Part shown: piece after piece, positions 10,065 to 47,690 of the stretch
Position numbering within the stretch: position 1 is the stretch's first letter
Layout of the letters: each line of letters begins with the position of its first letter
Assembly: GCF_039536245.1 (NCBI RefSeq)
Contig: NZ_BAAAYN010000043.1
Location: 1 to 64,000 of the forward strand
Direction of reading: 5' to 3'
Length of the DNA: 64,000 nucleotides
DNA from: Cryptosporangium minutisporangium
GTDB lineage: Bacteria > Actinomycetota > Actinomycetes > Mycobacteriales > Cryptosporangiaceae
The notes under the pieces: generated by a model
What the model saw: the letters and a program-made list of their open reading frames with translations, nothing else
Told to the model about the DNA's origin: nothing
Database searches by the model: none
Position numbers and translations under genes: made by a program

Positions 10065-10777
10065 ATCGACGCCGTCCGGCGAACCGCCGTGGGCGGGCCC
10101 CGCCCCGCCGTCGAACTCCCGCGCTGCCCTCGCATCCCCGCCGCGGCCCGCGCTCCCACCCCCGCCGCCGTCCACTCGCGGGCGCCTTCCGCAAAGCCCC
10201 CGCCGCCCTGCCGCCCAGGGCGGGGCGGGCGTCCCTCGAGGCCACCGCTCGCAGGCCGGGGGACATTTTCGGGAAGCCCGCCGCCGCAGCTGGTTTTCGG
10301 GCAGGCCACCGTTCCCGGGGCCTCGGGGAGGTTGTTTTTCGGGAAGGCCGCCCCTGGCGGGCCAGGGAGAGGTTGTTTTTCGGGAAGGCCGCCCCTGGCG
10401 GGCCAGGGAGAGGTTGTTTTTCGGGAAGGCCACCGCTCGCGCGGCCCGGAGAGGTGGTTTTTCGGGAAGTTGGCCAGGCTGCCCGGGGCGACGTGGCGGG
10501 CATGCCGCGGAACCCGGCGCAGCGGCAGCGGCGCGGGGTGGCGATCACGGCGTCTGGGGTGCAAGCCGAGGCTCTCCAGACCGCCAGCGGCCCGGATCAG
10601 CCACGGTGGTTACTACGAGCGATGCATCAATCACGGCTAGTCATGCGGGCGGTTCAGGGGTCGCTGGACGGCGCGGTCGGTGCGAGTCTCGGCCCCGACG
10701 TGGGGGACCCGGCCGTCTCGGTCGGGCACGTCGGGCGGAGCCAGGGGTGGACTCCGCGTCATTCGCCGGGGGGCACC
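10065..10777. other. 713-base intergenic region
   Basis: No coding sequence is convincing here; frames that run through it shift at every 41-bp repeat. The first ~200 bases are extremely C-rich on the + strand, the middle (10,261-10,475) holds the repeat array, and 10,480-10,777 shows no structure I can name apart from the leader of the M50B-like gene. Confidence 0.6.
10261..10475. repeat. Array of 41-bp repeats with TTTTTCGGGAAGGCC core
   Basis: The T-run and CGGGAAG core recurs at 10,335, 10,376, 10,417 and 10,458, each exactly 41 bases apart. Two degenerate copies precede it (cores near 10,266 and 10,294). Two consecutive units are identical over about 40 bases and contain the palindrome CCCTGGC-GG-GCCAGGG; the flanking units keep the core but differ in the palindrome. 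The period is not a multiple of three, so the array is not coding. Related units with the same period are at 41,311-41,410 and 47,591-47,690. Confidence 0.88.
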
Positions 10778-11527
10778 ATGACAGCTGGCCTGCTGCCGTT
10801 ATCCGTCCTGCTCGCGCCATCACCCGCGCCGTCGGAGCCCGGCCCGGCCGCGACGCCGGGGCGCCTCGAAGAGGTGATGTCGAACATCGCCGAAGCCCAG
10901 CCCAGCGCTCCGACCTGGCTGGTGATCTGCACAGGCCTGGCCGCTCTCGGCCTCTCTGGCTCGTTCGTGTTCATCGACTGGCTGGTCAGCGCGAGCCACG
11001 AGGGCGCTCACGCGGTGATGAGCGATTTCACGTCGAAGCTCGAGTGGGTCAAGATCCCGTTGAACGGCAACCCGGGGACGAAGCCTTCCGACGACACCGG
11101 GCATCTAGCGAGCATCGCTATCGGCGTCGTCGGCTACATCGGCCCGTCGCTGTTCGGACTGCTCGGTGCCGTCCTCCTGGCCCATGACCACCCGGTGGCC
11201 GTGCTGTGGCTGGCGATCGTCCTGTTTGCGGCACTTCTGTGGAACATCACGAATCCGTTCGGATTCGTCGTAGTGGGCCTCCTGGGCGGGTTTGTCCTTG
11301 TTGTCGCCTGGTCGACTTCGATCCGGTCGCAGACCACGGTCGCGTACTTGATGGTCTGGTCGCTGCTCATCGCCGGCCTCGGCGACGTCGCCAAGCTGGC
11401 GGTGAAGAGCGATCACACGAGATTGCGGGAACTCACCTGGATCCCGGCTCGGATCTGGGCGCTGTCCCACCTCGCTTTCTGCGCGTACGCGCTCTACCTC
11501 GGCGGGCGAATGCTGCTGACGGGTTGA
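10778..11527 (+). CDS. M50B-like membrane metallopeptidase
   Basis: 249 residues from ATG 10,778 (a G-rich site lies five bases upstream; ATG 10,877 is an alternative that would remove a Pro-rich leader). It has about six hydrophobic segments. HEGAH, a zinc HExxH motif, follows the first of them (residues ~73-77, in SASHEGAHAVM). Later segments (GHLASIAIGVVGYIGPSLFG) match the Gly-rich second region of the Pfam peptidase_M50B family, and the C-terminus keeps the family's L-x-x-T-x-I/L-P-x-x-W pattern (ELTWIPARIW). It is probably an intramembrane or membrane-embedded zinc protease; its substrate is unknown. It precedes the DUF4397/sortase operon but is 112 bases away. Confidence 0.78.
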   Translation: MTAGLLPLSVLLAPSPAPSEPGPAATPGRLEEVMSNIAEAQPSAPTWLVICTGLAALGLSGSFVFIDWLVSASHEGAHAVMSDFTSKLEWVKIPLNGNPGTKPSDDTGHLASIAIGVVGYIGPSLFGLLGAVLLAHDHPVAVLWLAIVLFAALLWNITNPFGFVVVGLLGGFVLVVAWSTSIRSQTTVAYLMVWSLLIAGLGDVAKLAVKSDHTRLRELTWIPARIWALSHLAFCAYALYLGGRMLLTG

Positions 11528-11639
11528 TTCGACGCGGGGTGCATCCGTCCGGCGGGTTCCGGTCGTAGCAGCAGGTGAGTACGGGCCGAGCGCCCCGCTC
11601 GACCAGCCCGAGACCGGAATTTCCTCGAGGAGGACCCGC

Positions 11640-12464
11640 ATGCTTCGCAACCGCGCCGCCCGCGCCGCACTGGGCGCCACCGCCGTCGCACTGATCGGCG
11701 GCGGCGTCAGCGTCGGCCTGTCCACGCCCGCCGCCGCGGCTGACCCCGCCAACGTGTCGGTGGTGCACGGCATCCCGGGCGCCACCGTCGACGTCTACGT
11801 CAACGGCAAGCGCACACTCGACAACTTCGCGCCGGCCACCGTCGCCGGTCCGCTGAAGCTGCCGGCCGGCTCCTACGACCTGAAGGTCGTCGCCGGTGAC
11901 GCCCCAGACGGCAACGCCGCGGCGGTCGTCGAGGCGAACGACGTCGACGTGCCTGCGGGTGCCAACGTCAGCGTCGTCGCCCACCTGGACGCCTCCGGCA
12001 AGCCGACGCTGACGCCGTTCGCCAACGACGTCTCCAAGGTCGCGCCCGGGCAGGCCCGCCTGACCGTCCGCCACACCGCCGCCGCACCCGCCGTCGACGT
12101 GCGCGCGAACCAGAAGGTCGCGTTCTCCGGCCTCGAGAACCCGAAGGAGGCCAAGGCCGACCTGCCTGCCGGCACGGTGAGCGCCGACGTCGTCCTGGCT
12201 GGACAGAGCCAGCCGGTGATCGGGCCGACCGACGTGGAGCTGAAGGAAGGCACCTCGACGATCGTGTACGCGATCGGATCGGCGCAGGACAAGACGCTGA
12301 ACGTGGTCGCGCAGACGATCGAGGGGCTGCACTCCGCTCCGTCGTCGGTGCCCGCCGGGTTCGGTAGCGACGCCGGCGTGCCGCCGTACGCGCTGCTGAC
12401 CGGAGGCCTTGGCCTGCTGATGCTGACCGCGGCCGGCGCTCGCCTGGCCACCGCGCGCAGCTGA
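11640..12464 (+). CDS. Secreted DUF4397 protein
   Basis: 274 residues, with GAGGAGGA upstream of the ATG. A signal peptide (residues ~1-34, ending TPAAAADP) leads to two tandem Ig-like DUF4397 modules: NVSVVHGIPGATVDVYVNG (~38-56) and the related RLTVRHTAAAPAVDVRANQ (~140-158). A final hydrophobic helix (~250-268) with ATARS at the end could anchor it. It heads an operon with a class F sortase (20-base gap), ECF sigma and anti-sigma. This context suggests a surface protein processed by the sortase. However, no LPxTG or LAxTG-like motif precedes the C-terminal helix. Confidence 0.9.
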   Translation: MLRNRAARAALGATAVALIGGGVSVGLSTPAAAADPANVSVVHGIPGATVDVYVNGKRTLDNFAPATVAGPLKLPAGSYDLKVVAGDAPDGNAAAVVEANDVDVPAGANVSVVAHLDASGKPTLTPFANDVSKVAPGQARLTVRHTAAAPAVDVRANQKVAFSGLENPKEAKADLPAGTVSADVVLAGQSQPVIGPTDVELKEGTSTIVYAIGSAQDKTLNVVAQTIEGLHSAPSSVPAGFGSDAGVPPYALLTGGLGLLMLTAAGARLATARS

Positions 12465-12483
12465 CCAGCTGAAGGAGATCGGT

Positions 12484-13122
12484 ATGCGCCGCCCCGCGGC
12501 CGTCGTGTTCGGCGTCGGCATCCTGCTGGTGCTCGTCGCCGTGTCCGTGTTCGTAGTCGCACGCGATCCCGCGGAGCCACCCACCACCGAGGGTGCCGCC
12601 GCGGCGGAGCGACTCGCGACCGAGGCCCCGGCGCCCCCGGCGACCACGGCCCGGGCGGCGCAGCCGATCACTCCGCAGCGGCTCCGGATCCCCGGCATCG
12701 GAGTGGACGCCACCGTGCTGCCGGTCGGGGTCGAAGCGGCCACCGGCGAGATGGAGGTGCCCCGGGCAGTCGATCGGGTGGGCTGGTACCGCTACGGCCC
12801 CGCCCTCGACGCCCCGGCGGGATCAATGGTGATCGCCGGGCACGTCGACGACGCCAGCCAGGGCCCCGGCGCCTTCTTCGAGTTGCGAGACCTGGGTATT
12901 GACGATCGACTGGTAGTCACCGGCACCGACGGCACCGACCGTCGTTACCGCGTCGTCGCCCGCGAGGTCTTCGACAAGTCCGCGGTGCCCCTCGATCGAC
13001 TGTTCAGCCGAGACGGAGCGCCGCGCCTGACGCTCGTTACCTGTGGCGGATCGTTCGACCGGGCCGCCCGCTCCTACCGCGACAACGTCGTGGTGACCGC
13101 CGTCGAGGAGGCTGGCCGATGA
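12484..13122 (+). CDS. Class F sortase
   Basis: 212 residues from ATG 12,484 (GAAGGAGA upstream). An N-terminal signal-anchor helix (~7-26) is followed by a Thr/Ala/Pro linker and the sortase beta-barrel: LRIPGIGVDATV, the catalytic His in VIAGHVDD, the catalytic Cys in LTLVTCGG and a following Arg-rich strand (RAARSYRDNVVV). The short catalytic domain and the neighbouring DUF4397 gene are typical of actinobacterial class F sortases. These are transpeptidases that cut and attach surface proteins outside the membrane. Its stop overlaps the sigma-factor start (ATGA at 13,119-13,122), implying translational coupling. Confidence 0.92.
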   Translation: MRRPAAVVFGVGILLVLVAVSVFVVARDPAEPPTTEGAAAAERLATEAPAPPATTARAAQPITPQRLRIPGIGVDATVLPVGVEAATGEMEVPRAVDRVGWYRYGPALDAPAGSMVIAGHVDDASQGPGAFFELRDLGIDDRLVVTGTDGTDRRYRVVAREVFDKSAVPLDRLFSRDGAPRLTLVTCGGSFDRAARSYRDNVVVTAVEEAGR

Positions 13123-13766
13123 CCCCAGGCGCAGACTCCGGTTCGCCGACCGGCGCGGAGGCCGGCCGACCGCCGGACACCCCCGGTGGCTGGCCGCCGG
13201 AGCCGACCGAGGGCGACGCCGACGCCCTGCTAGCCGCTCGGTTCCTCGCCGGCGACGAGTGCGCACTGCGCGCGATGTACGACCGATGGGGTGGTCTCGT
13301 CTACCGACTGGGCCGCCAGACGCTCCCCAGCTCCAGCGACGCCGAGGACCTCACCCAGGCGACGTTCGTCGCCGCCTGGCGGGGCCGTTCGACGTTCGAT
13401 CCGGAGCGGGGACGGCTGGCCGGCTGGGTGATGGGTATCGCGAAGCGTCAGCTGGTCGACCGGCTGCGTGCCCTGCAGCGGGAAGAGCGAGTGGTCCGGG
13501 TGGTGGAGGCGGTCGAGCCGGTGATGCCGGCCCATCCCGGCCCGGAGCGAGTGCTGGACAGGCTGGTCGTGGCCGATCGATTGGCCCAGCTCAGCCCGGA
13601 GCAACGCCGGGTCGTCCAGCTAGCGTTCTTCGACGACCTGACGCACACCCAGATCTCGGGCTTGACCGGGCTACCACTCGGCACGGTGAAATCACATCTG
13701 CGCCGTGGCGTCAGCCAGCTGCGTCGATCTTGGGAGGAGGTGGACCATGCGGCACGTCGACCCTGA
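13119..13766 (+). CDS. ECF-type RNA polymerase sigma factor
   Basis: 215 residues. A ~30-residue Pro/Gly-rich N-terminal extension precedes sigma region 2 (ARFLAGDECALRAMYDRW ... DAEDLTQATFVAAWRG ... GWVMGIAKRQLVDRLR) and region 4 (LSPEQRRVVQLAFFDDLTHTQISGLTGLPLGTVKSHLRRG), with no large region 3. This matches the ECF group paired with RskA-like anti-sigma factors. It starts inside the sortase stop codon, and its own 3' end overlaps the anti-sigma gene by 20 bases. It probably transcribes this operon and envelope-stress genes. Confidence 0.93.
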   Translation: MTPGADSGSPTGAEAGRPPDTPGGWPPEPTEGDADALLAARFLAGDECALRAMYDRWGGLVYRLGRQTLPSSSDAEDLTQATFVAAWRGRSTFDPERGRLAGWVMGIAKRQLVDRLRALQREERVVRVVEAVEPVMPAHPGPERVLDRLVVADRLAQLSPEQRRVVQLAFFDDLTHTQISGLTGLPLGTVKSHLRRGVSQLRRSWEEVDHAARRP

Positions 13767-14529
13767 ACGACTGACCCTGCTGGCGCTCGACGAGGACTTG
13801 CCGCCGGCCGATGCCGACGAGCAGTGGGCGCGTGCCCACCTCGCGGAGTGCCCGGTGTGCGGCCAGGAGTACGCGGCCCTCCGGCACGTCATCGGGCTGG
13901 GCCGGGAATCCGACGCCGACGACCTGGCTCCGCCCCCGCCGCCACCGCGCGTCTGGGACGCGATCCAAGCCGAAGTCCGGACCGAACTCCTGGCCGAAAC
14001 CCCGGCCGAACCCCCGGCCGAACCCCCGGCCGAACCCCCGGCCGAGGTCGTTCCGCTCCGTCCTCGCGGACGCCGCATTCCGCCCCGCCGGGTGCTCACC
14101 GCCGCAGCGGCGTGCGTGCTCGGCGTCGTCCTCGGAGTGGGTGCGACGCTCGGATGGCAGGAGGTCCGTAGCCCGGCACCTACCGAGCGCACCGTGGTCG
14201 CGTCGACGGAGCTCGCGCCGGTCGGGCAGGCGGGTACCGGTAGCACCGGCGACGCCCGCCTGGTCCGCACCGACGACGGACTCGCGCTCGAGATCGACGT
14301 GCGCGAACTGCCGCTGACCGACGGCTTCTACGAGGCGTGGATGTTCGTCCCCGGCACCACCCGGATGCAGGCGATGGGTGCGGTCCGGCCGGGCGAACTG
14401 GTGCGGTTCCCGGTACCGGCGGGACTGGACCCGGCGGGCTGGCGCGGCATCGACATCTCGTCGGAGGCGTTCGACGGCGATCCGGCGCACTCGGCCACCA
14501 GTGTGCTGCGCGGTGAGTTGCGTCGGTGA
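13747..14529 (+). CDS. Zinc-containing anti-sigma factor (RskA type)
   Basis: 260 residues from ATG 13,747, which has GGAGGAGG upstream inside the sigma gene. The cytoplasmic ZAS motif HLAECPVC (His31, Cys35, Cys38) is followed by a linker with four PAEP units encoded by 12-bp tandem repeats (about 13,998-14,045). One membrane helix follows (~115-137, VLTAAAACVLGVVLGVGATLGW), then an extracytoplasmic RskA-like C-terminal domain (LPLTDGFYEAWMFVPGTTRMQAMGAV). It should bind and silence the overlapping sigma factor until released, usually by regulated proteolysis. The M50B-like protease gene upstream is a speculative candidate for that role. Confidence 0.9.
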   Translation: MRHVDPERLTLLALDEDLPPADADEQWARAHLAECPVCGQEYAALRHVIGLGRESDADDLAPPPPPPRVWDAIQAEVRTELLAETPAEPPAEPPAEPPAEVVPLRPRGRRIPPRRVLTAAAACVLGVVLGVGATLGWQEVRSPAPTERTVVASTELAPVGQAGTGSTGDARLVRTDDGLALEIDVRELPLTDGFYEAWMFVPGTTRMQAMGAVRPGELVRFPVPAGLDPAGWRGIDISSEAFDGDPAHSATSVLRGELRR

Positions 14530-14579
14530 GTTGGTACCACTGCGTACCAACGGTCGGTGCGGCGCGGTAGAAAGTACCC

Positions 14580-17500
14580 ATGTCAACGCGGGTGCTCGTC
14601 GCCAACCGAGGTGAGATCGCGGTCCGGGTACTCCGGGCCGCGCGTGAGCTCGGCTGGGCCACCACAGCCGTGTACGCGGCCGACGACGCGGGCGCCGCTC
14701 ACGTCGGGCTCGCCGACGACGCGCGCCCGCAGCCCGGCGCTGGTCCGGCGGCCTACCTCGACGTCGACGCGCTGGTGGCCGCCGGCGTCGAGACCGGGTG
14801 CACGCTCGTCCACCCCGGCTACGGCTTCCGTTCGGAGAGCGCCGAGTTCGCTCGGGCGTGCGCCGCGGCCGGCCTGACGTTCGTCGGGCCGGAGCCCGAC
14901 GTCCTCGACCGGCTCGGCGACAAGACCAGTGCTCGTGCGCTCGCCGCGGACCTGGGGATCCCGGTCGCGGCCGGCGGGTCGACGCTCGCCGAGGCGGAGA
15001 AGCTGCTGGAGAAGCACGGCGCGGTCATCGTCAAGGCGGTGGCGGGCGGCGGCGGGCTGGGCATGCGCGTGGTACGCGACGCCGGGCAGCTCGCCGACGC
15101 GTACGAACGGTGCCGCTCGGAGGCGCGCTCGGCGTTCGGCCGGGAGGACGTCTACGTCGAGCAGTACCTGGCCGCCGCCCGGCACGTCGAGGTGCAGGTG
15201 GTCGGCGACGGCACCGGCGCGGTGGTGGCGATCGGCGACCGGGACTGTTCGGTGCAGCGGCGGCACCAGAAGCTCGTCGAGGTGGCGCCCGCTCCGGCAC
15301 TGCCGCCGGCAGTGCGTGCGGCGCTGGCCGACGCTGCCACCCGGTTGACCGCGGCGGTCGGGTTCCGCGGCCTGGCCACGGTCGAGTTCCTGGTGGACGC
15401 CGATGCGCTCACGGCGGGAGCCCCGGAACCGTTCGCCTTCCTGGAGGTCAACCCTCGACTTCAGGTGGAGCACACGGTCACCGAGGAGGTCCACCGGGTC
15501 GACCTGGTAGCAGCTCAACTGCGGATCGCCGCCGGTGCGACGCTGGACGACGTCGGTCTCGCGACGCCGCCGCCACCGGTCGGGTGCGCGATCCAGGCCC
15601 GGGTGAACGCGGAGTCCTACCGCCCCGACGGCTCGCCGACGCCGTCCACCGGCACGCTCACCACCGTCACGTTGCCTGGCGGCCCTGGCGTCCGGGTCGA
15701 CACCGCGGCTCGGGTGGGCGACGCGGTCTCCGCCCGGTTCGACAGTCTGCTGGCGAAGGTCGTGGTGTCCGCGCCGGACGGCCCGGGTGGAACGCTCCGT
15801 CGACTCGAGCGGGCGCTGGCCGAGACCCGGCTCGACGGCGTCGCGACGAACCTGCCCGCGCTGGCGGCGATCGTGGCGCACCCCGCGTTCCGCGACGGGC
15901 TCGCTGCCGGGACGGTCACCACCGGTTTCCTCGCCGACCACCCCGACGTGCTGCGGGCAGCGTCCGCTGCCGAGACGGTGACCACCGCAGACACTCAGCC
16001 GGGTACGGTCCCGGCCACCGCCGACCTGCGCGGTGTGGTCGCCGCGGTCCGGGCCGAGGTCGGCCGGTCCGTGCGCGCGGGCGAGGAGCTCGTGGTGGTC
16101 GAGGCGATGAAGATGGAGCACGTCGTCGCCGCGCCGGTCGACGGCACGGTGGTGGCGGTGCCGGTGGCGGCCGGTGATCCGGTCGTCGAGGGTGCGGTCG
16201 TGGCCGTCGTGCTGCCCGGTGACGCCGGCGAGGACGCGGCCGTCGAGGCCGCCGACCACGACCCGGACGCGATCCGCTCCGACCTGGCCGACGTCCTCGG
16301 GCGGCAGGCGCTGCTGCAGGACGCCGCTCGCCCGGAGGCAGTGGCGAAGCGGCACGCGCGTGGGCGCCGGACGGCCCGAGAGAACCTCGCTGACCTGGTC
16401 GAACCGGGTACCTGGGTGGAGTACGGCGGTCTGGTCGTCGCGGCGCAGCGCACCCGCCGTTCGCTCGACGAGCTGGTGGCCAAAACTCCGGCCGACGGTG
16501 TGGTCGCCGGGCTGGGGCGGATCAACGGAGACCTGTTCGCCGACGACCGGGCCCAGGCGGCGGTGCTCAGCTACGACTACACGGTGCTGGCCGGCACCCA
16601 GGGCATGGCCGGTCACAAGAAGAAGGACCGGCTGTTCGAGGTGATCGAGCGCCTGCGGCGTCCGGTCGTGCTGTTCGCGGAGGGCGGTGGCGGGCGCCCC
16701 GGCGACGTCGACGTGCAGACCGTGTCCGGCCTCGACACACAGGCGTTCACGCTGTGGGCGGGCCTGTCCGGGCTGGTGCCGCGGATCGCGGTCGTCTCCG
16801 GACGTTGTTTCGCCGGGAACGCGGCGCTGGCCGGCTGTTCCGATCTGATCATCGGCACCCGCGACGCGTCGCTCGGGATGGGTGGCCCGGCGATGATCGA
16901 GGGCGGCGGCCTCGGGGTGGTCGCCCCCGACGAGGTCGGCCCGGCGGCGGTGCAGGCCGCGAACGGCGTCCTCGACGTCTTGGTGGACGACGACGCGGCC
17001 GCGGTCGCCGCCGCGAAGCAGGCGCTCTCTTACTTCCAAGGGGCGCTGCCCAGCGGCGACGCCGTTGACCAGCGGTTGCTGCGTCAGGCGATCCCGGAGA
17101 ACCGGCTGCGCGTCTACGACGTGCGGCGGATCGTCGAGGGACTCTGCGACACCGGTTCCGTGCTCGAACTGCGGAGCGGGTTCGCGCCCGGGATGGTCAC
17201 CGCGCTGGCCCGGATCGACGGGCGGCCGGTCGGCGTCCTGGCGAACAACCCGCTGCACCTGGCGGGCGCGATCACCAGCGACGGCGCCGACAAGGCGGCT
17301 CGGTTCCTGCAGCTCTGCGAGGCCCACCGGCTGCCGGTGATCTCGCTCGTCGACACGCCCGGAATGATGGTCGGCCCGGACGCCGAGAAGACCGCCCTGG
17401 TGCGGCACTGCAGCCGCCTCTTCGTGGTGGGTGCCGCGCTGACCGTCCCGCTCGTCGCGGTCGTGCTGCGCAAGGCGTACGGCCTGGGTGCCCAGGCGAT

Positions 17501-17816
17501 GACCGGCGGCAGCCTGCTGAACCCGTTGCTCACCGTGGCCTGGCCGACCGGCGAACTCGGTGCGATGGGCTTCGAGGGCGCGGTCCGGCTCGGGGCTCGC
17601 AAAGAGCTGGAGGCGATCGCCGATCCGGTCGAGCGGCAGCAGTTCTTCGAGGCCGCGGTGGCGGCGCTGTACGAACGGGGCAAGGCGCTCTCGGCCGCGA
17701 CCTACGGCGAGCTGGACGACGTCGTCGATCCCGCCGACACCCGGCGGCTGATCCTCACCGTGCTGCGTTCTGCGCACCCTGGCGAGCATCGTCGCGGATT
17801 CGTCGACGTGTGGTGA
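14580..17816 (+). CDS. Single-chain acyl-CoA carboxylase (BC-BCCP-CT fusion)
   Basis: 1078 residues. Domains in order: biotin carboxylase (1-~440; NRGEIAVRVLRAARELG, ATP-grasp KAVAGGGGLGM, EVNPRLQVEHTVTE); biotinyl domain (~475-550; EAMKMEH with biotin Lys511); carboxyltransferase beta then alpha parts (~560-1078; GRRTARENLADLVEPG, GGGGRPGD, DTPGMMVG, GSLLNPLLTVAWPTGELGAMG). The usual alpha subunit stops after the biotinyl domain. Here the CT is fused, so one chain could do the whole reaction: ATP-dependent carboxylation of an acyl-CoA such as acetyl-, propionyl- or a longer-chain CoA. No pccB/accD partner is nearby. A 51-base gap separates it from the anti-sigma gene. The reverse strand is open for its entire length, a high-GC artefact. 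Confidence 0.92.
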   Translation: MSTRVLVANRGEIAVRVLRAARELGWATTAVYAADDAGAAHVGLADDARPQPGAGPAAYLDVDALVAAGVETGCTLVHPGYGFRSESAEFARACAAAGLTFVGPEPDVLDRLGDKTSARALAADLGIPVAAGGSTLAEAEKLLEKHGAVIVKAVAGGGGLGMRVVRDAGQLADAYERCRSEARSAFGREDVYVEQYLAAARHVEVQVVGDGTGAVVAIGDRDCSVQRRHQKLVEVAPAPALPPAVRAALADAATRLTAAVGFRGLATVEFLVDADALTAGAPEPFAFLEVNPRLQVEHTVTEEVHRVDLVAAQLRIAAGATLDDVGLATPPPPVGCAIQARVNAESYRPDGSPTPSTGTLTTVTLPGGPGVRVDTAARVGDAVSARFDSLLAKVVVSAPDGPGGTLRRLERALAETRLDGVATNLPALAAIVAHPAFRDGLAAGTVTTGFLADHPDVLRAASAAETVTTADTQPGTVPATADLRGVVAAVRAEVGRSVRAGEELVVVEAMKMEHVVAAPVDGTVVAVPVAAGDPVVEGAVVAVVLPGDAGEDAAVEAADHDPDAIRSDLADVLGRQALLQDAARPEAVAKRHARGRRTARENLADLVEPGTWVEYGGLVVAAQRTRRSLDELVAKTPADGVVAGLGRINGDLFADDRAQAAVLSYDYTVLAGTQGMAGHKKKDRLFEVIERLRRPVVLFAEGGGGRPGDVDVQTVSGLDTQAFTLWAGLSGLVPRIAVVSGRCFAGNAALAGCSDLIIGTRDASLGMGGPAMIEGGGLGVVAPDEVGPAAVQAANGVLDVLVDDDAAAVAAAKQALSYFQGALPSGDAVDQRLLRQAIPENRLRVYDVRRIVEGLCDTGSVLELRSGFAPGMVTALARIDGRPVGVLANNPLHLAGAITSDGADKAARFLQLCEAHRLPVISLVDTPGMMVGPDAEKTALVRHCSRLFVVGAALTVPLVAVVLRKAYGLGAQAMTGGSLLNPLLTVAWPTGELGAMGFEGAVRLGARKELEAIADPVERQQFFEAAVAALYERGKALSAATYGELDDVVDPADTRRLILTVLRSAHPGEHRRGFVDVW

Positions 17817-17900
17817 CGACCACATTCGTGCGCATCGGTATCACGGAGGTGGTTCGACGGTCTGTTCCGGTGAGTTCGTTGCCGGAGGGGAAGGATCGTC

Positions 17901-18500: not shown

Positions 18501-18523
18501 TTCTCCACGCTGAGCTGGGTAAA

Positions 18524-22186: not shown

Positions 22187-22193
22187 CGCAGCG

Positions 22194-39687: not shown

Positions 39688-39760
<73 letters not shown>

Positions 39761-39990: not shown

Positions 39991-40029
39991 CGTGTAGGTG
40001 TACGGCAGGATCTGCCGGAAGTACTGCGG

Positions 40030-41286
40030 ATGAGCGGGGTAACGATGCGGGCGGTCCGCACCACGGTCGGCGGCGACGCCGAGCGACACGGTCGGCGATG
40101 GGCGAAGCGGGTCGGCGCCGCGGTGCTCGCGGTGGGGTTGCTGGCCGCGTGTGACAGCGCGGCCGGAGCGCCGACCGGGGAGTTCAGCCCGGCCGGCAAC
40201 ACGGCGTCGAAGAGCCCGGCGGTGCCGACGACGCTCGCCCTGACGGCGCCGGCGAACAAGGCCACGAAGGTCCTGACCAGCTCGGTGCTGACGTTCACCA
40301 CCAACGGCACGCTCGACACGGTGACGCTCACCGGCTCGGACGGGAAGCCGGTGGCGGGCAACGTCTCGAGCGACAAGAAGTCGTGGGTGCCGGCGCGGCA
40401 GCTCGCGTACAGCGCCACCTACAAGGTGGTCGCGACGGCGTCGCAGGGCGGCGAAAACAGCAAGACGCTGACGTCCACGTTCACGACGATGGCCCAGCCG
40501 TCCTCGATCACCGGCGCCGACCTCTACGTCAACGACGGTGACACGGTGGGGATCGGGCTGCCGATCGTCGTCGAGTTCACGAACAGCATCCCCAAGTCGC
40601 AGCGTGCCGCGGTGGAGAGGCGGCTCTTCGTCACCAGCACCCCCGCTGTCGAAGGCTCGTGGCACTGGTTCTCCGGGAGCGAGATCCACTACCGTCCGCG
40701 CGCGTACTGGCCGAGCGGCGCGAAGGTGTCGGTGCGGCTGGCCATCGGCGGCCTGCCGATGGGTGACGGGAGCTACGGCAAGCGTGACCGGTTCGCCACG
40801 TTCACGGTCGGCCGCGCGGTGACCAGCAAGGTCGTCAACAAAGACAAGACGATGTACGTCTACAAGGACGGGAAGCTGATCCGGAAGTTCCCAATCAGCC
40901 TCGGCAAGCGCAGCACGCCGACGTCGTCCGGCCGGATGGTCGCAATGGAGAAGGCGTACAAGAAGACGTTCGACTCCGGAACGTTCGGCGTGCCGTCGGA
41001 CTCACCAGACGGGTACCGGCAGGTGGTGTACTTCGACGTCCGGTTCACCTGGGGCGGGGAGTTCGTGCACGCTGCGCCGTGGTCGGTCGGCTCGCAGGGA
41101 CGTGAGAATGTCTCGCACGGATGTGTCAATGCGTCGACGGCCAACGCCAGCTGGTTCTACGAGCTGACGCTCAAGGGCGACCCGATCGAGGTCATCGGCA
41201 CCGAGACGCGCGTCGAGAAGGGCAACGGCTGGACCGACTGGGAGCTCAGCTGGGAGCAGTACAAGGCGGGTAGCGCGCTGCGCTGA
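40030..41286 (+). CDS. L,D-transpeptidase lipoprotein with Ig-like domains
   Basis: 418 residues from ATG 40,030 (ATG 40,045 is equally possible). A long basic N-terminus leads to a signal peptide with lipobox LLAAC (~Cys39), so it is a lipoprotein. Two Ig-like domains (~65-150 and ~155-258, the second ending RFATFTVG) precede the YkuD catalytic domain (~260-385) with HAAPWSVGSQGRENVSHGCVN split around catalytic Cys (SHGC) and His. A C-terminal Trp-rich tail (WTDWELSWEQY) follows. This is the LdtMt2-like architecture. It makes 3-3 cross-links in peptidoglycan outside the membrane. Confidence 0.93.
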   Translation: MSGVTMRAVRTTVGGDAERHGRRWAKRVGAAVLAVGLLAACDSAAGAPTGEFSPAGNTASKSPAVPTTLALTAPANKATKVLTSSVLTFTTNGTLDTVTLTGSDGKPVAGNVSSDKKSWVPARQLAYSATYKVVATASQGGENSKTLTSTFTTMAQPSSITGADLYVNDGDTVGIGLPIVVEFTNSIPKSQRAAVERRLFVTSTPAVEGSWHWFSGSEIHYRPRAYWPSGAKVSVRLAIGGLPMGDGSYGKRDRFATFTVGRAVTSKVVNKDKTMYVYKDGKLIRKFPISLGKRSTPTSSGRMVAMEKAYKKTFDSGTFGVPSDSPDGYRQVVYFDVRFTWGGEFVHAAPWSVGSQGRENVSHGCVNASTANASWFYELTLKGDPIEVIGTETRVEKGNGWTDWELSWEQYKAGSALR

Positions 41287-41310
41287 CCGCCGCTGCCGGC
41301 GGCGCCGAGC

Positions 41311-41415
41311 GAATTTTTCGGGAAGGCCACCTCTCGGGCGCCGCCGGGAGGTGGCCTTTCGGGAGAACCACCCCTCCGCGCCCCCTCAGAGGTGGCCTTT
41401 CGGGAAAAGCGCCAC
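41311..41415. repeat. Three 41-bp-spaced TTTCGGGA repeats
   Basis: The C of TTTCGGGA falls at 41,319, 41,360 and 41,401, exactly 41 bases apart, starting 25 bases after the L,D-transpeptidase stop. Unit borders are GGTGGCC on the left and CCACC on the right. One unit shares 23 of 25 bases with the inverted copy near 47,630. The array is non-coding. Confidence 0.85.
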
Positions 41416-41537
41416 CCAGCGCCCAGGATGAGCGGCGCGGCGCCCCGGCAGCGGGGACGGCGCCCCCGCCACGGGGCGGCGAGCGGGTGCGCACATGACG
41501 AAGGGCCGGTCCGAATGGACCGGCCCGTCTCGCCGTA

Positions 41538-41614: not shown

Positions 41615-41738
41615 ATGCGCACTACCCGATCCGGAGGACCAGCTCGCGCGGCTCACTCATCATAGCGGTCCGCGCCCGCGCACCTCGACCTCGATCCCCC
41701 CTCTGGGGATCGCGCAGGTCACACCGGGCCGCTGGGCG

Positions 41739-42341: not shown

Positions 42342-42387
42342 GGACGGCAGCCTATCCACCCGGACGAACAACCGTGTCGAGCCCTAC

Positions 42388-43014
42388 CTAACTGTCCCGC
42401 ACAGTCCGATATGCGAGCATGCCGCCGAAGGCCATCAAACCGACCCCGGAGAGCGTGTCGACCGTCTGCATCAAGCGGTCCCCGATCCGCCGCCGGGCGA
42501 GCGCCACGCCGAGCGCCAGCACCGTGAACCAGCCGATGCTGCCGATGCCGAGGCCGGCGAGCAGGCTCCCCGCCGAGGCCGGTGACGACGTCAACGCGGC
42601 GGTGGACGCGGCGGCGAAGATCGAGGCCCAGGACGCGATCGTCAGCGGATTGGACGCGGTGGCCAGCACGGACGTGCGCAACGCCGCCTTGACGGTGGTC
42701 ACCTCGTCCACGGTTTCCAAGCCCAGTCGCACCCGGTGGGCCGTCCACAGCGTGCGGGCACCCATCCAGATCAGGACGCCGGCGCCGATGGTGCCGAGCG
42801 TCCACCGGATGGTGTCCGACCGGACCAGTTGGGCGACTCCGAGCAGGCCGAGCGTGGCGTACGCCATGTCGACGAGCGCGGCGCCGAGCCCGATCGCGAG
42901 CCCGGGCGCCAGCCCGTAGCGCAGGACGGTGCGGACGCAGAGTAGGGAAACCGGCCCGACCTGGGCCGCGACGAAGAGACCGAGTCCCAACCCGGCCAGG
43001 GCAGCGGTGAGCAT
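42388..43014 (-). CDS. LysE-family exporter
   Basis: 208 residues from ATG 43,014. Six membrane helices; GLFVAAQVGPVSLLCVRTVLRYGLAPGLA (split over helix 1 and loop) is the LysE/RhtB signature QxGP, and SNPLTIASWASIF is the second conserved block. It would export an amino acid or similar small solute using the proton gradient. It may be co-transcribed with orn (46-base gap). Confidence 0.88.
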   Translation of the reverse strand: MLTAALAGLGLGLFVAAQVGPVSLLCVRTVLRYGLAPGLAIGLGAALVDMAYATLGLLGVAQLVRSDTIRWTLGTIGAGVLIWMGARTLWTAHRVRLGLETVDEVTTVKAALRTSVLATASNPLTIASWASIFAAASTAALTSSPASAGSLLAGLGIGSIGWFTVLALGVALARRRIGDRLMQTVDTLSGVGLMAFGGMLAYRTVRDS

Positions 43015-43190
43015 GACGTCGATCCCAGCACGCGGGACCGCGAGTGTTCGATCGGTTTTCCCGGCCCCGCTCGCCGGGCAACCATTCCAGAGCGAGCGCC
43101 CCGTTCCGGGCGCTACCGTCACCTGCCTGCCCGAGGGCGTCGCGCGGGCTGCCGGGCGAACGCACGACCACGCACGAGGAGGGCCCGCCG

Positions 43191-44954
43191 ATGGTCGGCC
43201 GGATTGAGGACTACGCGGTCATTGGCGACCTGCACACTGCAGCGCTCGTCGGCACCGACGGCTCGATCGACTGGCTCTGCCTGCCGCGCTTCGACTCCGG
43301 CGCGTGCTTCGCTGCCCTGCTCGGTGACGAGGAGAACGGCCACTGGCGGATCGCGCCGGTCGGACAGAGCGTCTGCACCAGCCGCAAGTACCGCGAGGAC
43401 ACGCTGATCCTGGAGACCGAGTGGACGACTCCGGAGGGCACGGTTCGCGTCATCGACCTGATGCCGCCCCGGGACGACGCCGTCGACGTGGTGCGGGTGG
43501 TGGAGGGCGTCAGCGGGCGGGTGTCGATGCGCAGCGTCCTGCGGCTGCGGTTCGACTACGGGCGGATCGTCCCCTGGGTCCGGCACGTCAACGGCGAGTT
43601 CGCCGCGGTCGCCGGCCCGGACGCGGTGTGGCTGCGCAGCAGCGTCCCGCTGCACGGAGAGAACCGGGCGACGATCGGGGACTTCACGGTCGGGCCGGGG
43701 GAGTACGTGCCGTTCGTGCTCACCTGGCGCGAGTCCTGGCACACCAACGACCGCGACGTGGACGCGATCGAGCAAGTCAACAACACCGAGGTGTACTGGC
43801 GCAGCTGGATCGACGGGTGCCGTTACGAGGGACGCTGGGCCGACGCGGTCCGGCGGTCGCTGATCACGCTCAAGGCGCTGACGTACGACCCGACCGGAGG
43901 GATCGTCGCTGCCGCCACGACGTCGCTGCCCGAACAGATCGGTGGACCCCGCAACTGGGACTACCGCTACTGCTGGCTGCGGGACGCGTCGTTCACGCTC
44001 CAGGCGCTGGTGTCCAACGGATACGACCTGGAGGCGCTCGCCTGGCGCGACTGGCTGCTGCGCGCGGTCGCCGGCGACCCGTCCGACCTGCAGATCATGT
44101 ACTCGATCAAGGGTGCCAGGCGGATCGACGAGTGGGACGTCCCGTGGCTGTCCGGGTACGAGAAGTCGACGCCGGTCCGGATCGGCAACGCGGCGAGCGA
44201 GCAGCTCCAACTGGACGTCTGGGGCGAGGTGCTCGACTGTCTGCACCTCGCGCGGGAGGCCGGCATCGCCGGGAGCGACGACGCCTGGCACCTGCAGAAG
44301 CGGCTGGTCCACCACCTGGAGTCCGCCTGGCGGGAGCCGGACAACGGTCTCTGGGAGGTCCGCGGCGACCGGCAGCACTTCGTGCACTCGAAGGTGCTGT
44401 GTTGGGTGGCGTTCGACCGGATGGTCAAGACCGCCGAGCAATTCGGTCAGGACGGCGACGTCGAACGGTGGCGGGCGATCCGGGACGAGATCCACGCGGA
44501 GGTGTGCGCCAAGGGCTTCGACCGGACGCGGAACACGTTCACCCAGTACTACGGCTCGACCGGCCTCGACGCGTCGCTGCTGCTCATCCCGCGGCTGGGG
44601 TTCCTGCCGCCGAGCGATCCCCGGGTGGTGGGCACCGTCGAGGCGGTGCAGCGCGAGCTGTGCGTCGACGGGTTCGTGCTGCGGTACCGCCCGGAGCAAG
44701 AGGCGGTCGACGGCCTACCCGGCGGCGAGGGCGCGTTCCTGGCCTGCAGCTTCTGGCTGGCCGACGCGTTGTTCCTGATCGGGCGCGAGGAGGAGGCGGT
44801 CGCGCTCGTCGATCGCCTGGTGGCGCTCTCCAGCGACACGGGGCTACTAGCCGAGGAGTACGACCCGGTCACCAAGCGTCACTTGGGTAACACCCCTCAA
44901 GCGTTCAGCCACGTCGCGCTCGTGAACTCCGCGGTGCTCATCGGCGGGGCCTGA
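43191..44954 (+). CDS. GH15 glucoamylase/trehalase-like glycosidase
   Basis: 587 residues from ATG 43,191 (GAGGAGGG upstream). An N-terminal beta-sandwich (EDYAVIGDLHTAALVGTDGSIDWLCLPRFDS, split, residues ~4-35) precedes the (alpha/alpha)6 barrel with GPRNWDYRYCWLRDASF (general acid region), EWDVPWLSGYE, HSKVLCWVAFDRM and a late EEYDPVTKRHLGNTPQAFSHVAL holding the second Glu. Actinobacterial members of this type are often trehalases, splitting trehalose to glucose; others are glucoamylases. No signal peptide, so it is cytoplasmic. Confidence 0.9.
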   Translation: MVGRIEDYAVIGDLHTAALVGTDGSIDWLCLPRFDSGACFAALLGDEENGHWRIAPVGQSVCTSRKYREDTLILETEWTTPEGTVRVIDLMPPRDDAVDVVRVVEGVSGRVSMRSVLRLRFDYGRIVPWVRHVNGEFAAVAGPDAVWLRSSVPLHGENRATIGDFTVGPGEYVPFVLTWRESWHTNDRDVDAIEQVNNTEVYWRSWIDGCRYEGRWADAVRRSLITLKALTYDPTGGIVAAATTSLPEQIGGPRNWDYRYCWLRDASFTLQALVSNGYDLEALAWRDWLLRAVAGDPSDLQIMYSIKGARRIDEWDVPWLSGYEKSTPVRIGNAASEQLQLDVWGEVLDCLHLAREAGIAGSDDAWHLQKRLVHHLESAWREPDNGLWEVRGDRQHFVHSKVLCWVAFDRMVKTAEQFGQDGDVERWRAIRDEIHAEVCAKGFDRTRNTFTQYYGSTGLDASLLLIPRLGFLPPSDPRVVGTVEAVQRELCVDGFVLRYRPEQEAVDGLPGGEGAFLACSFWLADALFLIGREEEAVALVDRLVALSSDTGLLAEEYDPVTKRHLGNTPQAFSHVALVNSAVLIGGA

Positions 44955-45001
44955 CGGCAGGTGGACCTGTCCGAGCGTGCGGATAGGTCCACCTGCCGTC
45001 A
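44952..45001 (+). terminator. 17-bp stem terminator containing the GH15 stop
   Basis: Perfect arms 44,952-44,968 and 44,985-45,001 with a 16-base loop; the left arm includes the TGA stop of the GH15 gene. The 130 bases after it show nothing. Confidence 0.8.
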
Positions 45002-45132
45002 GCACCGAGCTCCGGGCGGGCACCGAACCGCGCGTCGGGGCGGCACCACCGCCTGGCGGACGCGAGGAGCGCGTCCGCCAGGTCCGCTGCAGGAGCGGGC
45101 GTCCTTGCGGTGGTTCGCCGGGCGGCGTCTGA

Positions 45133-45540
45133 CTAAAAGCGGTGAGCTTCGTGGCCGTACCCGAGGGCAGAAGCCACTTCCCCTGCGTTTTGGTATTCGG
45201 CATCGGCGGGCAGGTCGCGAACCGCGCTGACCAACCGCGCGGGAGCGTTGTTCTCGACCAGCCGGTCGATGAGCTGGTCGCGGCGCGCCGGGTAGATCTC
45301 CTTGCCCAGGTGCGCGGCGAGCTCCGAGCGTCCCTCGACGCCCTCCGGGGTGAGCCCCTCGGGAACGCCGCCGGTCAGCGTGCCGTTCGGCGCGAAGTCG
45401 GCCTCGGGCTGGTCTTCGCCGGAGGGCTCCGGGTCGCGCCACTCCTCGGTCCGACCCGAATGCCCGGACCGCACCAGACCTTCGGTCTCGCGCGCCATCG
45501 CCTCGTCCTGCCGTGGTCCGTGTTTGTCGCTGCGTTCCAT
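45133..45540 (-). CDS. DUF2795 protein
   Basis: 135 residues from ATG 45,540. A charged N-terminal half without structure precedes the small DUF2795 domain (~70-130): SELAAHLGKEIYPARRDQLIDRL, split, and LPADAEYQNAGEVASALGY, which follows the family's 'P-A-x-x-x-L-x-x-A ... F-x-s-x-x-e-V-x-x-A-L' pattern. The function is unknown. It follows the flavin reductase gene in the same direction (29-base gap). Confidence 0.82.
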   Translation of the reverse strand: MERSDKHGPRQDEAMARETEGLVRSGHSGRTEEWRDPEPSGEDQPEADFAPNGTLTGGVPEGLTPEGVEGRSELAAHLGKEIYPARRDQLIDRLVENNAPARLVSAVRDLPADAEYQNAGEVASALGYGHEAHRF

Positions 45541-45569
45541 GGGCCAGCGATTACCCGGCGCCTGCGAAC

Positions 45570-46136
45570 TCAATCACGCGGTGTGAGGGTCCGGTACCCG
45601 CGGTCGTACCGCACCAGGGGGTTGCGTCCCGAGCCGGTGGTGGCGCTCACCACCGAGGCGGTCACCAGCAGGTGGTCCCCGACCGATCGGCGATCGGTGG
45701 TGACGCACTCCAGCGTGGCGCCGGCTCGGTCGAGCAGCAGCGCGCCGGTCGCCGCGCCGCGGTGGTGCTCCTCCTCGGCCAGCAGCAACCGGGCACTCGG
45801 ACGTCCGGCCACCGCGAACCGTCCGGCCAGCGCCGCCTGATTACTGGCGAGGACCGACAACCCCCAGTGCGCCCGGCGGCCCAGTACCTCGGCGACGTAG
45901 CCGGCCGAATCCACCGCGATCGCCACGATCGGCGGGAACAACGAGACCGGCATCAACGCTGTGAGGGTGACGGCGAGATCGTCGGCGGGGTCGTCGAAGT
46001 CCTCGTCGGGATCGAGAGCATCGGGGCCGGGCGGCGCCGATTCGGGTGGCCGTCCGTCCCGGACGCTCAGCACCACGACGCCGGTGGCGAACCGCCCGAG
46101 AGCGGATTTCACCTGGTCGGCCGAGGTGTTCGTCAC
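45570..46136 (-). CDS. Flavin reductase-like (FMN split-barrel) protein
   Basis: 188 residues from GTG 46,136 (GGATGG upstream); an upstream ATG at 46,232 is possible. The protein matches the flavin reductase-like domain: SALGRFATGVVVLSV, TLTALMPVSLFPPIVAIAVD, WGLSVLASNQAALAGRFA, LECVTTDRRSVGDHLLVTASVV, then LVRYDRGYRTL. An Asp/Pro-rich loop (~30-55) replaces the usual short turn after the first strand, which is odd. It would supply reduced flavin to a partner oxygenase; none is adjacent. Confidence 0.82.
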   Translation of the reverse strand: MTNTSADQVKSALGRFATGVVVLSVRDGRPPESAPPGPDALDPDEDFDDPADDLAVTLTALMPVSLFPPIVAIAVDSAGYVAEVLGRRAHWGLSVLASNQAALAGRFAVAGRPSARLLLAEEEHHRGAATGALLLDRAGATLECVTTDRRSVGDHLLVTASVVSATTGSGRNPLVRYDRGYRTLTPRD

Positions 46137-46313
46137 AGAACCATCCGGAAACTCACCGGGGCAGGTTACCCGGCCGATGGGGTGGGCATCCCCTGACGGA
46201 TGGCTCACAGCGCGCAACGTTGCGCGGATCACCCTTCGAAACCGGAATCTCCGCCGGGTGAACGCCGTTGTGGGTTACGTACGTGTGAGGCACAAAGAGG
46301 GATTGGGGAGACG

Positions 46314-47276
46314 ATGACGACGGACGTTGTGGAACCGAGTACCCGGGTCGTCGAGGTGGACGACACCGCGGCACCGGACCGCGACCTCGTCGGCACATAC
46401 CTGCACGAGATCAGCCGCACACCGCTGCTGAACGCCGCGCAGGAAGTGGAGCTGTCGAAACAGGTCGAGGCCGGCCTCCTCGCCGAGTTCTGGCTCGACG
46501 AAGGAACGATCCCCGAGCACATCACGCGTTCTGAGCTTACCCGGCTCGTGGCCGAAGGTCGCCGGGCGAAGGACGCATTCATTCTGGCCAACCTTCGCCT
46601 GGTGGTTTCGATCGCGCGGCGGTACACCCGCAGCGCGATGCCGCTGCTGGACCTGGTGCAGGAGGGTAACTCCGGCCTGGTCCGTGCCGTGGAGAAGTTC
46701 GACTACCAGCGCGGATACAAGTTCTCCACCTACGCGACCTGGTGGATCCGGCAGGCGATCAGCCGAGCCATCGCGCAGCAGGCCCGAACGGTCCGGCTCC
46801 CCGTCCACCTCGTGGAGGAGATCAACCGGATGCGTAACGTCCGGCGCGATCTGACCCGTGAGCTGGGCCGTGAGCCCGAGATCGCGGAGATGGCCGGCGC
46901 GCTAGACATCGAGCCGTCGCGGGTCGAGGAGCTGATTCGGTGGGCGCGGGAGACCGTGTCGCTGGACACCCCGGTCGGTGAGGACGGCGAGACCTCGCTG
47001 TCCGACCTGGTCGCGGATCGGGACGAGCCGTCGCCGGAGGACGTGGTCATCGCCGCGCTCCAGCGGGACGGGCTCGGGCAGATGATCGAGCGGCTCGACC
47101 CGCGGTCGGCGCGGATCGTCCGGGCGCGGTACGGCCTCGAGGACGGGCGGCAGCAGTCGCTCACCGAGATCGCCGGCACGCTGGGACTGTCCCGCGAGCG
47201 AGTGCGGCAGCTCGAGAACGCGGCGCTGCACCAGCTCCGCGAGCTCGCCGCCTCCGAAGGCGTGGTTGCAGCCTGA
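46314..47276 (+). CDS. SigB/HrdD-type sigma-70 factor
   Basis: 320 residues from ATG 46,314 (GGGGAGACG upstream). Region 1.2 (DLVGTYLHEISRTPLL), region 2 (LRLVVSIARRYTRSAMPLLDLVQEGNSGLVRAVEKFDY split, GYKFSTYATWWIRQAI), region 3 (LPVHLVEEINRM, GREPEIAEMAG) and region 4 (YGLEDGRQQSLTEIAGTLG, SRERVRQLE) are complete. There is no long region 1.1. It is therefore a non-essential principal-like factor, as SigB in mycobacteria or HrdB paralogues in Streptomyces. It ends in a classic terminator. Confidence 0.94.
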   Translation: MTTDVVEPSTRVVEVDDTAAPDRDLVGTYLHEISRTPLLNAAQEVELSKQVEAGLLAEFWLDEGTIPEHITRSELTRLVAEGRRAKDAFILANLRLVVSIARRYTRSAMPLLDLVQEGNSGLVRAVEKFDYQRGYKFSTYATWWIRQAISRAIAQQARTVRLPVHLVEEINRMRNVRRDLTRELGREPEIAEMAGALDIEPSRVEELIRWARETVSLDTPVGEDGETSLSDLVADRDEPSPEDVVIAALQRDGLGQMIERLDPRSARIVRARYGLEDGRQQSLTEIAGTLGLSRERVRQLENAALHQLRELAASEGVVAA

Positions 47277-47288
47277 GGTTCGTAGCGG

Positions 47289-47317
47289 AGCCCCGGCCCG
47301 ATTGGGCCGGGGCTTTG
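47289..47317 (+). terminator. Intrinsic terminator of the sigma gene
   Basis: AGCCCCGGCCC-GATT-GGGCCGGGGCT followed by TTG/T: an 11-pair GC stem with a 4-base loop and short T-run, 12 bases after the stop. Confidence 0.9.
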
Positions 47318-47460
47318 TCATGTCTACGCCGTCCGGATCACCACCGCAGGTATGCCCGCTCCTGCATCCCGGGTGGCGCGACGCGCGCCTCGCCTCCGCT
47401 GTCAGTGGTGCCCGCACCGCCGCGCGGTGTCGTCCGACGTGCGCGCCCGGTGCCGCCTGG

Positions 47461-47690
47461 GCGAGTGCGAACTTCCCGAATATCCGTCCGCATGGCGGCG
47501 GCGACGCCCGGCGCGCCTGGGCGAGTGCGAACTTCCCGAATATCCGTCCGCATGGCGGCGGCGACGCCCGGCGCGCCTGGGCGAGTGCGAACTTCCCGAA
47601 AATGCGCCCGCCGGCGGGGTGGGTGGGGTGGTTCTCCCGAAAGCCAACCTGTGCGCCGCCCGCGAGAGGTGGTCTCCCCGAAAGTCCGCC
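47461..47690. repeat. 60-bp exact duplication plus 41-bp-spaced TTTCGGGA repeats
   Basis: Bases 47,461-47,520 and 47,521-47,580 are identical; a third copy keeps the first 20 bases. On the minus strand each carries TTCGGGAAGTTCGCAC. From the third copy on, the CCC of the core lies at 47,595, 47,636 and 47,677, a 41-base period as at 10.3 and 41.3 kb but in the opposite orientation. This fills most of the 477-base gap between the sigma-factor terminator and the DUF2630 gene; no coding sequence is supported there. Confidence 0.85.

What the first reader, a model, noticed from the sequence alone, without database searches (positions are those of the whole stretch)
10261..47690. TTTCGGGA repeat with exact 41-bp period at three distant loci
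Cores spaced 41 bp occur at 10,335/10,376/10,417/10,458, at 41,319/41,360/41,401 and (inverted) at 47,595/47,636/47,677. One unit at 41.3 kb and one at 47.6 kb match at 23 of 25 bases, while sequences between cores vary. 41 bp is about four helical turns, so all cores face the same side of the DNA; it is not a codon multiple. All three arrays lie just downstream of + strand genes. This looks like a phased protein-binding array or a dispersed non-coding repeat.
Basis: seen in the sequence. Interest (0 to 1): 0.82.

Follow-up and report, generated by a model that had tools for sequence, protein, structure and literature searches.

The report
Species-specific phased palindromic intergenic repeat arrays
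Between its genes this actinobacterium carries, at about eighty sites, short palindromic DNA repeats locked to a spacing of about 41 bases that its held sister species lack; they resemble known mobile palindromic repeats but lack the usual end tag, and no matching transposase was found.

Summary
In the window's own genome (9.23 Mb) TTTCGGGA recurs at exactly 41 bp 68 times; the reversed control pattern 0 times. A covariance model gives 133 matches (129 distinct units) at 81 loci, and none in three congeners. The unit is TTTCGGGAAGRCCACCTC, 14 mostly G/C bases, GAGGYGGNY, then the next core: a hairpin-capable palindrome with a well-kept core, moderately conserved arms and a random loop. Exact same-strand cores lie 39-42 bp apart. 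Arrays are intergenic, enriched between convergent genes, rare in divergent gaps, orientation-neutral. Congeners lack them at the orthologous sites that could be aligned. Best explanation: a species-specific dispersed palindromic repeat that behaves like REP/BIME elements (DNA-level, non-autonomous, tandemly multiplied), whose core an unidentified protein recognises. It fails REP membership tests: no GTAG or CGTC tag, no RAYT transposase. A protein-binding role for the phasing is consistent but unproven. A second family with a 32-bp period has similar habits. New variant of a known kind.

The parts
10267..10467 (+). Array 1: five exact cores (10267, 10337, 10378, 10419, 10460) plus a degenerate core at 10295; the last four exact cores at 41-bp spacing
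   Evidence: model matches between C43:10263 and 10473
41316..41405 (+). Array 2: three exact cores at 41316, 41357, 41398; two hairpin units; 29 bp after an L,D-transpeptidase gene
47594..47683 (-). Array 3: inverted; two exact cores (47594, 47635) and one degenerate core (47676)
   Evidence: model matches C43:47588-47646 and 47629-47687
47444..47611 (-). 60-bp tandem repeat (2.8 copies) carrying ATTCGGGAAG-type cores, running into array 3
   Evidence: TRF; the repeat finder
41277..41471 (.). 195 bp that are 15 bp at the orthologous site of congener G002 (array 2 plus flanks)
47320..47731 (.). 412 bp that are 19 bp at the orthologous site of congener G002 (array 3, the 60-bp repeat and a separate dispersed palindrome)
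2869..3007 (+). Array of the second family (B): about 32-bp period, core TGGTTGTCG, with a palindromic centre and inverted copies

Best explanation
The arrays are copies of a species-specific, non-autonomous, dispersed palindromic repeat that works like REP/BIME elements. Shown: the unit is an 8-bp core (TTTCGGGA) with inverted arms (RCCACCTC / GAGGYGG) around a random GC-rich loop; units are chained head to tail in a 39-42 bp register, some arrays closing with an inverted core; they sit mostly in tandem and convergent gaps; congeners lack them at the orthologous sites that could be aligned. Inferred: copies spread on this lineage by a DNA-level copying process, then multiplied locally. The core stays intact because an unidentified DNA-binding protein (a mobilising nuclease or a chromosome protein) must recognise it, and the palindromic arms can extrude or fold as a hairpin beside it. 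Rarity in divergent gaps reflects selection against insertion into promoters.
For: Dispersed: 133 model matches, 129 distinct units, 81 loci on 48 contigs (only 150 candidates per genome were scored, so probably a lower bound). Species-specific: 0 of 3 congeners with the model, 0 of 60 other genomes under stricter filters, 0 of 4 other family members with the exact pattern. Of 396 other genomes of the order 4 have one hit each, and the reversed control also hits 4 of them (8 hits), so these are background. Insertion polarity: gap here against G002 is 195/15, 412/19, 304/51, 199/3 bp and 352/82, 256/50, 322/34, 201/32, 236/17, 199/48, 225/66 bp. Context: of 55 clusters with two or more exact cores 24 convergent, 26 tandem, 1 divergent, 4 at an edge, against 92/312/171 gaps of 60 bp or more (p 2e-7 convergent, 6e-7 divergent; 6e-7 and 1e-6 without the doubtful L057 row). 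Held-out set, 26 distinct gaps: 14 convergent, 9 tandem, 2 divergent, 1 edge against 27/71/49 (p 3e-5 and 0.005). Orientation-neutral: 11 sense, 15 antisense in tandem gaps. Core kept, loop free: inter-locus identity 0.80 for the CCACC arm and 0.421 for the loop against 0.403 at random, core 1.00 by selection of exact cores; middle cores exact in 35 of 40; right-arm-anchored cores 39 exact, 6 with 1-2 mismatches. Local multiplication: units of one array 0.69 alike, of different arrays 0.54.
Against: No mobiliser found: no Y1 transposase (PF01797) in 5 of 5 family genomes, with controls that rang in 5 of 14; the Y2 transposase search was empty, but its controls were silent too. Flanking genes show no family common to many arrays (10 similar pairs, 28-40% identical except one gene counted twice, among 106 proteins). 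Junctions show no clear target-site duplication and the extra DNA includes non-repeat flanks. At L089 the G002 gap is longer than ours (280 against 178 bp). Loops are saturated between loci although fourfold sites still match G002 at 0.68, which does not fit simple recent copying from one master. Only 26 of 62 units with an array mate have their nearest relative in the same array. Of 82 stretches with both arms 16 have no core-like word on either side. Pairing support is weak: 72.9% of cells paired against 70.4% shuffled.
Confidence: 0.58

Rival explanations
1. A phased protein-binding array kept for chromosome topology: a nucleoid protein or gyrase binds the cores on one face of the helix and absorbs positive supercoils where convergent transcription meets.
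For: Exact same-strand cores only 39-42 bp apart, none at 1-38 or 43-65. Core well kept while loops are random. Enrichment between convergent genes. At least some E. coli BIME-2 elements are gyrase sites in vivo (PMC6379681, passages). A second family with a 32-bp period in the same genome.
Against: No match in three congeners, which manage without it. Most arrays have only two or three chained cores (27 and 20 of 52). 41 bp is 3.9, not 4.0, turns (my arithmetic). Orientation is mixed among the six arrays examined on one 210-kb contig. No candidate protein.
Confidence: 0.2
2. RNA-level elements: bidirectional terminators or 3'-end stabilisers formed by the hairpins of transcribed arrays.
For: They lie at 3' ends and between convergent genes; arrays fold somewhat better than shuffles (mean z -2.0 core strand, -1.5 other strand; 40 of the 52 arrays folded, core strand lower in 26); on the core strand a T-run follows the stem (sequence).
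Against: Orientation is neutral in tandem gaps (11 against 15). At 5 of 10 loci checked a congener has a terminator-like stem of 11 bp or more in the gap, and this genome keeps a separate one outside the array at 4 of these 5. At the other 5 loci no stem of 9 bp or more was found in the congener gaps tested (both congeners at 3, G002 alone at 2). Covariation is weak.
Confidence: 0.14
3. Miniature transposon (MITE) of an unidentified insertion sequence: the cores and outer GGCGGAT/ATCCGCC arms are decayed terminal inverted repeats.
For: Some single-unit copies are full inverted repeats with an inverted second core, e.g. L061 and L056; empty sites in congeners.
Against: No clear target-site duplication; outer-arm pairing is not clearly above shuffling (z 1.4); no gene family common to array flanks (flanking genes were not scanned for transposases as such); head-to-tail chains at fixed pitch are unusual for MITEs (recalled).
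Confidence: 0.06
4. Ordinary slippage minisatellites or chance GC-rich repeats.
For: Units within an array are more alike than between arrays, and some arrays show ABAB duplication, e.g. L054.
Against: Slippage cannot put the same core and arms at 81 separate loci.
Confidence: 0.02

Closest known systems
REP / BIME elements (GTAG and CGTC families; PMC3733652: abstract, passages and section 15 seen)
   Same: Short palindromic, high-copy, intergenic; mostly between unidirectional and convergent genes; several families in some genomes, some species-specific; often close together; the CGTC families apparently lack a dedicated transposase too
   Different: No GTAG or CGTC tag beside the outer cores as a rule; no RAYT match in the genome; head-to-tail chains at a fixed pitch of about 41 bp with a well-kept core and random loop
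E. coli BIME-2 gyrase sites (PMC6379681, passages only)
   Same: Intergenic palindromic arrays
   Different: Sequence was not compared here; gyrase binding not tested here
MITEs and neisserial NIME/dRS3 arrays (recalled, no call)
   Same: Palindromic repeats interspersed with variable sequence in intergenic arrays
   Different: Different sequence and pitch as recalled; no clear target duplication found here
Intergenic VNTR/MIRU minisatellites of mycobacteria (recalled, no call)
   Same: Tandem units in intergenic DNA
   Different: Here one core and its arms are shared by 81 loci while loops are unrelated

Membership tests
REP (GTAG or CGTC superfamily) | Palindromic extragenic repeat in high copy | tested here: met
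   129 distinct units at 81 loci; intergenic
REP (GTAG or CGTC superfamily) | Unpaired GTAG or CGTC tag at one end | tested here: not met
   GTAG or CTAC within 14 nt outside 0 of 52 first and 0 of 52 last cores; CGTC or GACG 2 of 52 and 4 of 52; inside 87 units GTAG 1, CTAC 2, CGTC 8, GACG 16
REP (GTAG or CGTC superfamily) | RAYT (Y1) transposase in the genome (GTAG families) | tested here: not met
   PF01797: no match in any of 5 family genomes; controls rang in 5 of 14 genomes. The genome is a 152-contig draft, 99.64% complete
REP (GTAG or CGTC superfamily) | Preference for convergent and unidirectional gaps | tested here: met
   compared with PMC3733652 section 15
BIME-2 gyrase sites | Bound or cleaved by gyrase | not testable with these tools
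   needs gyrase mapping
MITE | Terminal inverted repeats | tested here: inconclusive
   consensus arms exist, but outer-arm pairing z 1.4
MITE | Target-site duplication | tested here: inconclusive
   none evident by eye at the junctions printed; flanks too diverged to be sure
Intrinsic terminator | Orientation bias relative to the upstream gene | tested here: not met
   11 sense, 15 antisense in tandem gaps
CRISPR | Identical repeats with unique spacers and cas genes | not tested
   Only the pitch is similar: the variable loop is 8-11 bases and units are palindromes; cas genes were not searched

The most novel reading that the evidence does not exclude
Since its split from its sister species the genome has evolved a chromosome-wide set of helically phased binding arrays (41-bp and 32-bp families, about four and three helical turns) between convergent and tandem genes. 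A dedicated lineage-specific DNA-binding protein keeps the cores intact while everything between them drifts to random GC-rich sequence: a new kind of supercoil-absorbing or insulating element, or a new mobile element that copies only core and arms and takes its loop from elsewhere.
Probability: 0.15. Interest if true: 0.8.

Novelty: new variant of a known kind. Interest (0 to 1): 0.5.

Why it matters
It adds a high-copy palindromic repeat family without the usual tags and without a detected RAYT, with a well-kept core and a fixed pitch, in an actinobacterial genome. If the core is bound, it gives a genome-wide set of natural array sites with empty-site controls in sister species, so the question whether REP-like repeats are parasites or adopted binding sites becomes directly testable.

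Tried and rejected
RAYT-driven REP: rejected as membership. IS91-type mobiliser: PF04986 found nothing, but the controls were silent, so inconclusive. Hairpin selected as RNA: pairing only slightly above shuffles and no strand bias. Outer-arm pairing as part of one large palindrome: not significant. A cassette-like gene travelling with the arrays: no family common to the flanks. Phage or plasmid origin: no match in viral contigs with one pattern, nor with array 1 in plasmids or phages. Genome contigs: a strict pattern found nothing (which may leave out the own genome); the search with the L,D-transpeptidase protein gave nine distant relatives, mostly Propionibacteriales-type MAGs and Microlunatus, 36-47% identical. 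So no call names the organism. Analogous arrays in congeners: no comparable word among the top 15 enriched words in 280 kb of G001 and 120 kb of G002; G003 was not sampled for this. Rfam: only three tRNAs in the window. Papers: the listings show nothing recognisable as this repeat (titles and abstract starts of the papers listed only; one search covered the bare core word and listed 15 of 570).

Limits: stretches L031-L090 were chosen around exact cores (from and the first 100 places), so counts on them lean towards arrays and intact cores; the held-out loci came from the model instead, but the model also weighs the core. The 27 held-out rows are 26 gaps, because the two rows of L169 share one gap. 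The gene calls are from a home-made codon-usage caller, and the background gaps include the array gaps (excluding them strengthens the convergent excess). Rows kept in the 55 clusters although they may not be true family members: the L057 minisatellite and loosely spaced pairs such as L031, L032 and L063. Model matches C38:106 and C56:346 were not fetched for the context test. The model alignment used 59 of the 64 units listed. One search used 11 of the 24 flanks printed; one search fetched 20 regions for 10 of these 11 loci (L088 left out).
Full report
Observation. One core (47676) is degenerate, and two more copies (10267 exact, 10295 degenerate) were missed. In the whole genome (G000, 9.23 Mb, 152 contigs; the window is contig C43:1-64000) the pair at exactly 41 bp occurs 33 + 35 times, the reversed pattern never. 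The single word occurs 326 times against 36 for the reversed word. In 61 stretches (1.21 Mb), distances between exact same-strand cores up to 300 bp are 39, 40, 41, 42 bp (6, 9, 64, 8 pairs), nothing at 1-38 or 43-65, with further peaks at 82 and 123.

Anatomy. The 61 distinct 41-mers give TTTCGGGAAGrCCACCTCtc, then 12 bases of which positions 21-31 are nearly pure G/C, then GAGGYGG.Y and the next core. The inner 8-11 loop bases are 89.5% G+C, near GC3 (91.7%), while intergenic DNA is 69.1%. Arms are inverted repeats, so both the inter-core segment and the core-centred segment are palindromic. Arrays of chained exact cores number 52 in the stretches: 27 with two cores, 20 with three, 1 with four, 3 with five, 1 with six. 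Some end in an inverted core, TCCCGAAA (L046, L056, L061, L065, L072, L075, L082, L087).

What is constrained. Between loci the CCACC arm is 0.80 identical and the loop 0.421 against 0.403 expected at random; the core is 1.00 because exact cores were selected. Without requiring an exact core at the place tested: the middle core between two exact cores about 82 bp apart is exact in 35 of 40 and has one mismatch in 5. Of 88 right-arm anchors CCACCTC in gaps with at least one exact core, 39 have an exact core upstream, 6 have 1-2 mismatches, 22 have three (by position these are the same palindrome read from the other strand, my reading) and 21 have four or more. With a looser arm the figures are 69 exact and 14 with 1-2 mismatches of 260 anchors. 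Of 82 stretches with both arms, 28 have two exact cores and 16 have no core-like word on either side. These tests still lean towards intact arrays. Pairing adds little beyond conserved sequence: z 2.9 for the inter-core stem and 0.8 for the core-centred one; 72.9% of cells paired against 70.4% shuffled, covariation score 0.176 against 0.142 (1 and 3 of 500 shuffles reach these).

Where they sit. Of 55 clusters with two or more exact cores 24 are in convergent, 26 in tandem, 1 in divergent gaps and 4 at an edge; background gaps of 60 bp or more are 92, 312 and 171 (p values). A further set of loci found by the model and not used before gives 27 rows, which are 26 gaps because two rows share one: 14 convergent, 9 tandem, 2 divergent and 1 edge against 27, 71, 49 (p 3e-5 convergent, 0.005 divergent). 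In tandem gaps the core points with the genes in 11 cases and against in 15. Array orientation also changes along contig C43.

Where they come from. The model R1 gives 133 matches in this genome and none in three congeners (150 candidates scored per genome), and none in 60 other genomes, congeners included, under stricter filters. Four units are matched on both strands, so there are 129 distinct units, in 81 loci more than 1 kb apart. The exact pattern is absent from 4 of 4 other family members. In the order sample of 397 genomes, 4 others have one hit each; the reversed control has 8 hits in 4 genomes other than ours, so this is background. At orthologous sites congener G002 has short gaps: 15 bp for our 195 (array 2), 19 for 412 (array 3), 51 for 304, 3 for 199; 82 for 352, 50 for 256, 34 for 322, 32 for 201, 17 for 236, 48 for 199, 66 for 225. 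Read from the nearest listed alignments, L047 is 4 for 135 and L079 108 for 163. The exception is L089 (280 for 178, with repeats of its own in G002). In G001, L074 is 4 bp for our 139; the site of array 1 does not align well enough to judge, L073 has lost flanking sequence, L048 is rearranged and L083 aligns on one side only. G002 is the nearer of the two relatives measured (coding identity 0.869, fourfold 0.683; G001 0.839 and 0.615), so gain on this lineage is the parsimonious reading. The extra DNA contains more than the repeat, and I see no clear target-site duplication.

Mechanism. A selfish copy that dies on arrival should lose its AT-containing core as fast as its loop. In most units it has not, although the loops are saturated. 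So the core is either recognised during ongoing copying or kept by selection for binding. I commit to a REP/BIME-like dispersed palindrome whose core is recognised by an unidentified protein (0.58), with a chromosome-topology binding array as the main rival (0.20). Terminator function is weakened by orientation neutrality and by the separate terminator-like stems kept beside arrays at 4 of the 5 loci where a congener has one. The step 'spread by copying' is inferred from dispersal plus empty sites. The step 'protein recognition' is inferred from constraint. Neither was shown directly.

A second family. TGGTTGTCG repeats at 31-33 bp occur 144 times in this genome, in 0 of the other 4 family genomes, and once in 1 of the 56 further genomes. 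Part of the 144 comes from long runs of identical units (e.g. contig C10). Several of its arrays have a palindromic centre (such as CCGTGCCATGGCACGG) followed by inverted copies; nine arrays in the stretches are 4 convergent, 4 tandem, 1 edge. The copy at window 2869-3007 lies in 277 bp that are 27 bp in G001 (my reading of the alignments). Two families of unlike sequence but similar habits suggest a general process in this species.

Comparison with what is known. REP families share the location bias, copy number and species-specificity (PMC3733652: abstract, passages, section 15). This family lacks the tags and the genome shows no such transposase, so it is not filed as a REP. At least some BIME-2 elements bind gyrase in E. 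coli (PMC6379681, passages), a lead for function only.

Noticed in passing
window 2869-3007; also L041 7956-8060, L051 9214-9798 and others: Second species-specific phased family: about 32-bp period, core TGGTTGTCG, 144 pairs in this genome and 0 in its four held family members; several arrays have a palindromic centre and inverted copies.
   Followed up: partly
window 45028-45128 and 47326-47427: Two copies, in opposite orientation, of a dispersed palindromic element (ACGCCGYCCGGCGAACCACCGC... or near it) that flank a flavin-reductase-like and a sigma-70-family gene; similar matches occur in all three congeners.
   Followed up: partly
window 47444-47611: 60-bp tandem repeat with a core related to TTTCGGGA (ATTCGGGAAG), merging into array 3.
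   Followed up: no
L057 9516-9779: Another minisatellite, about 32 bp per unit (GATGGTTGGCGCGCATTCCGGACGGC...), perhaps a variant of the 32-bp family.
   Followed up: no
window 14580-17825: Very long overlapping open frames on both strands (1078 and 1080 aa), not surprising in 71% G+C DNA.
   Followed up: no
G000 C10:662-1214: The 32-bp family forms a run of identical units near a contig end, a possible cause of the assembly break.
   Followed up: no
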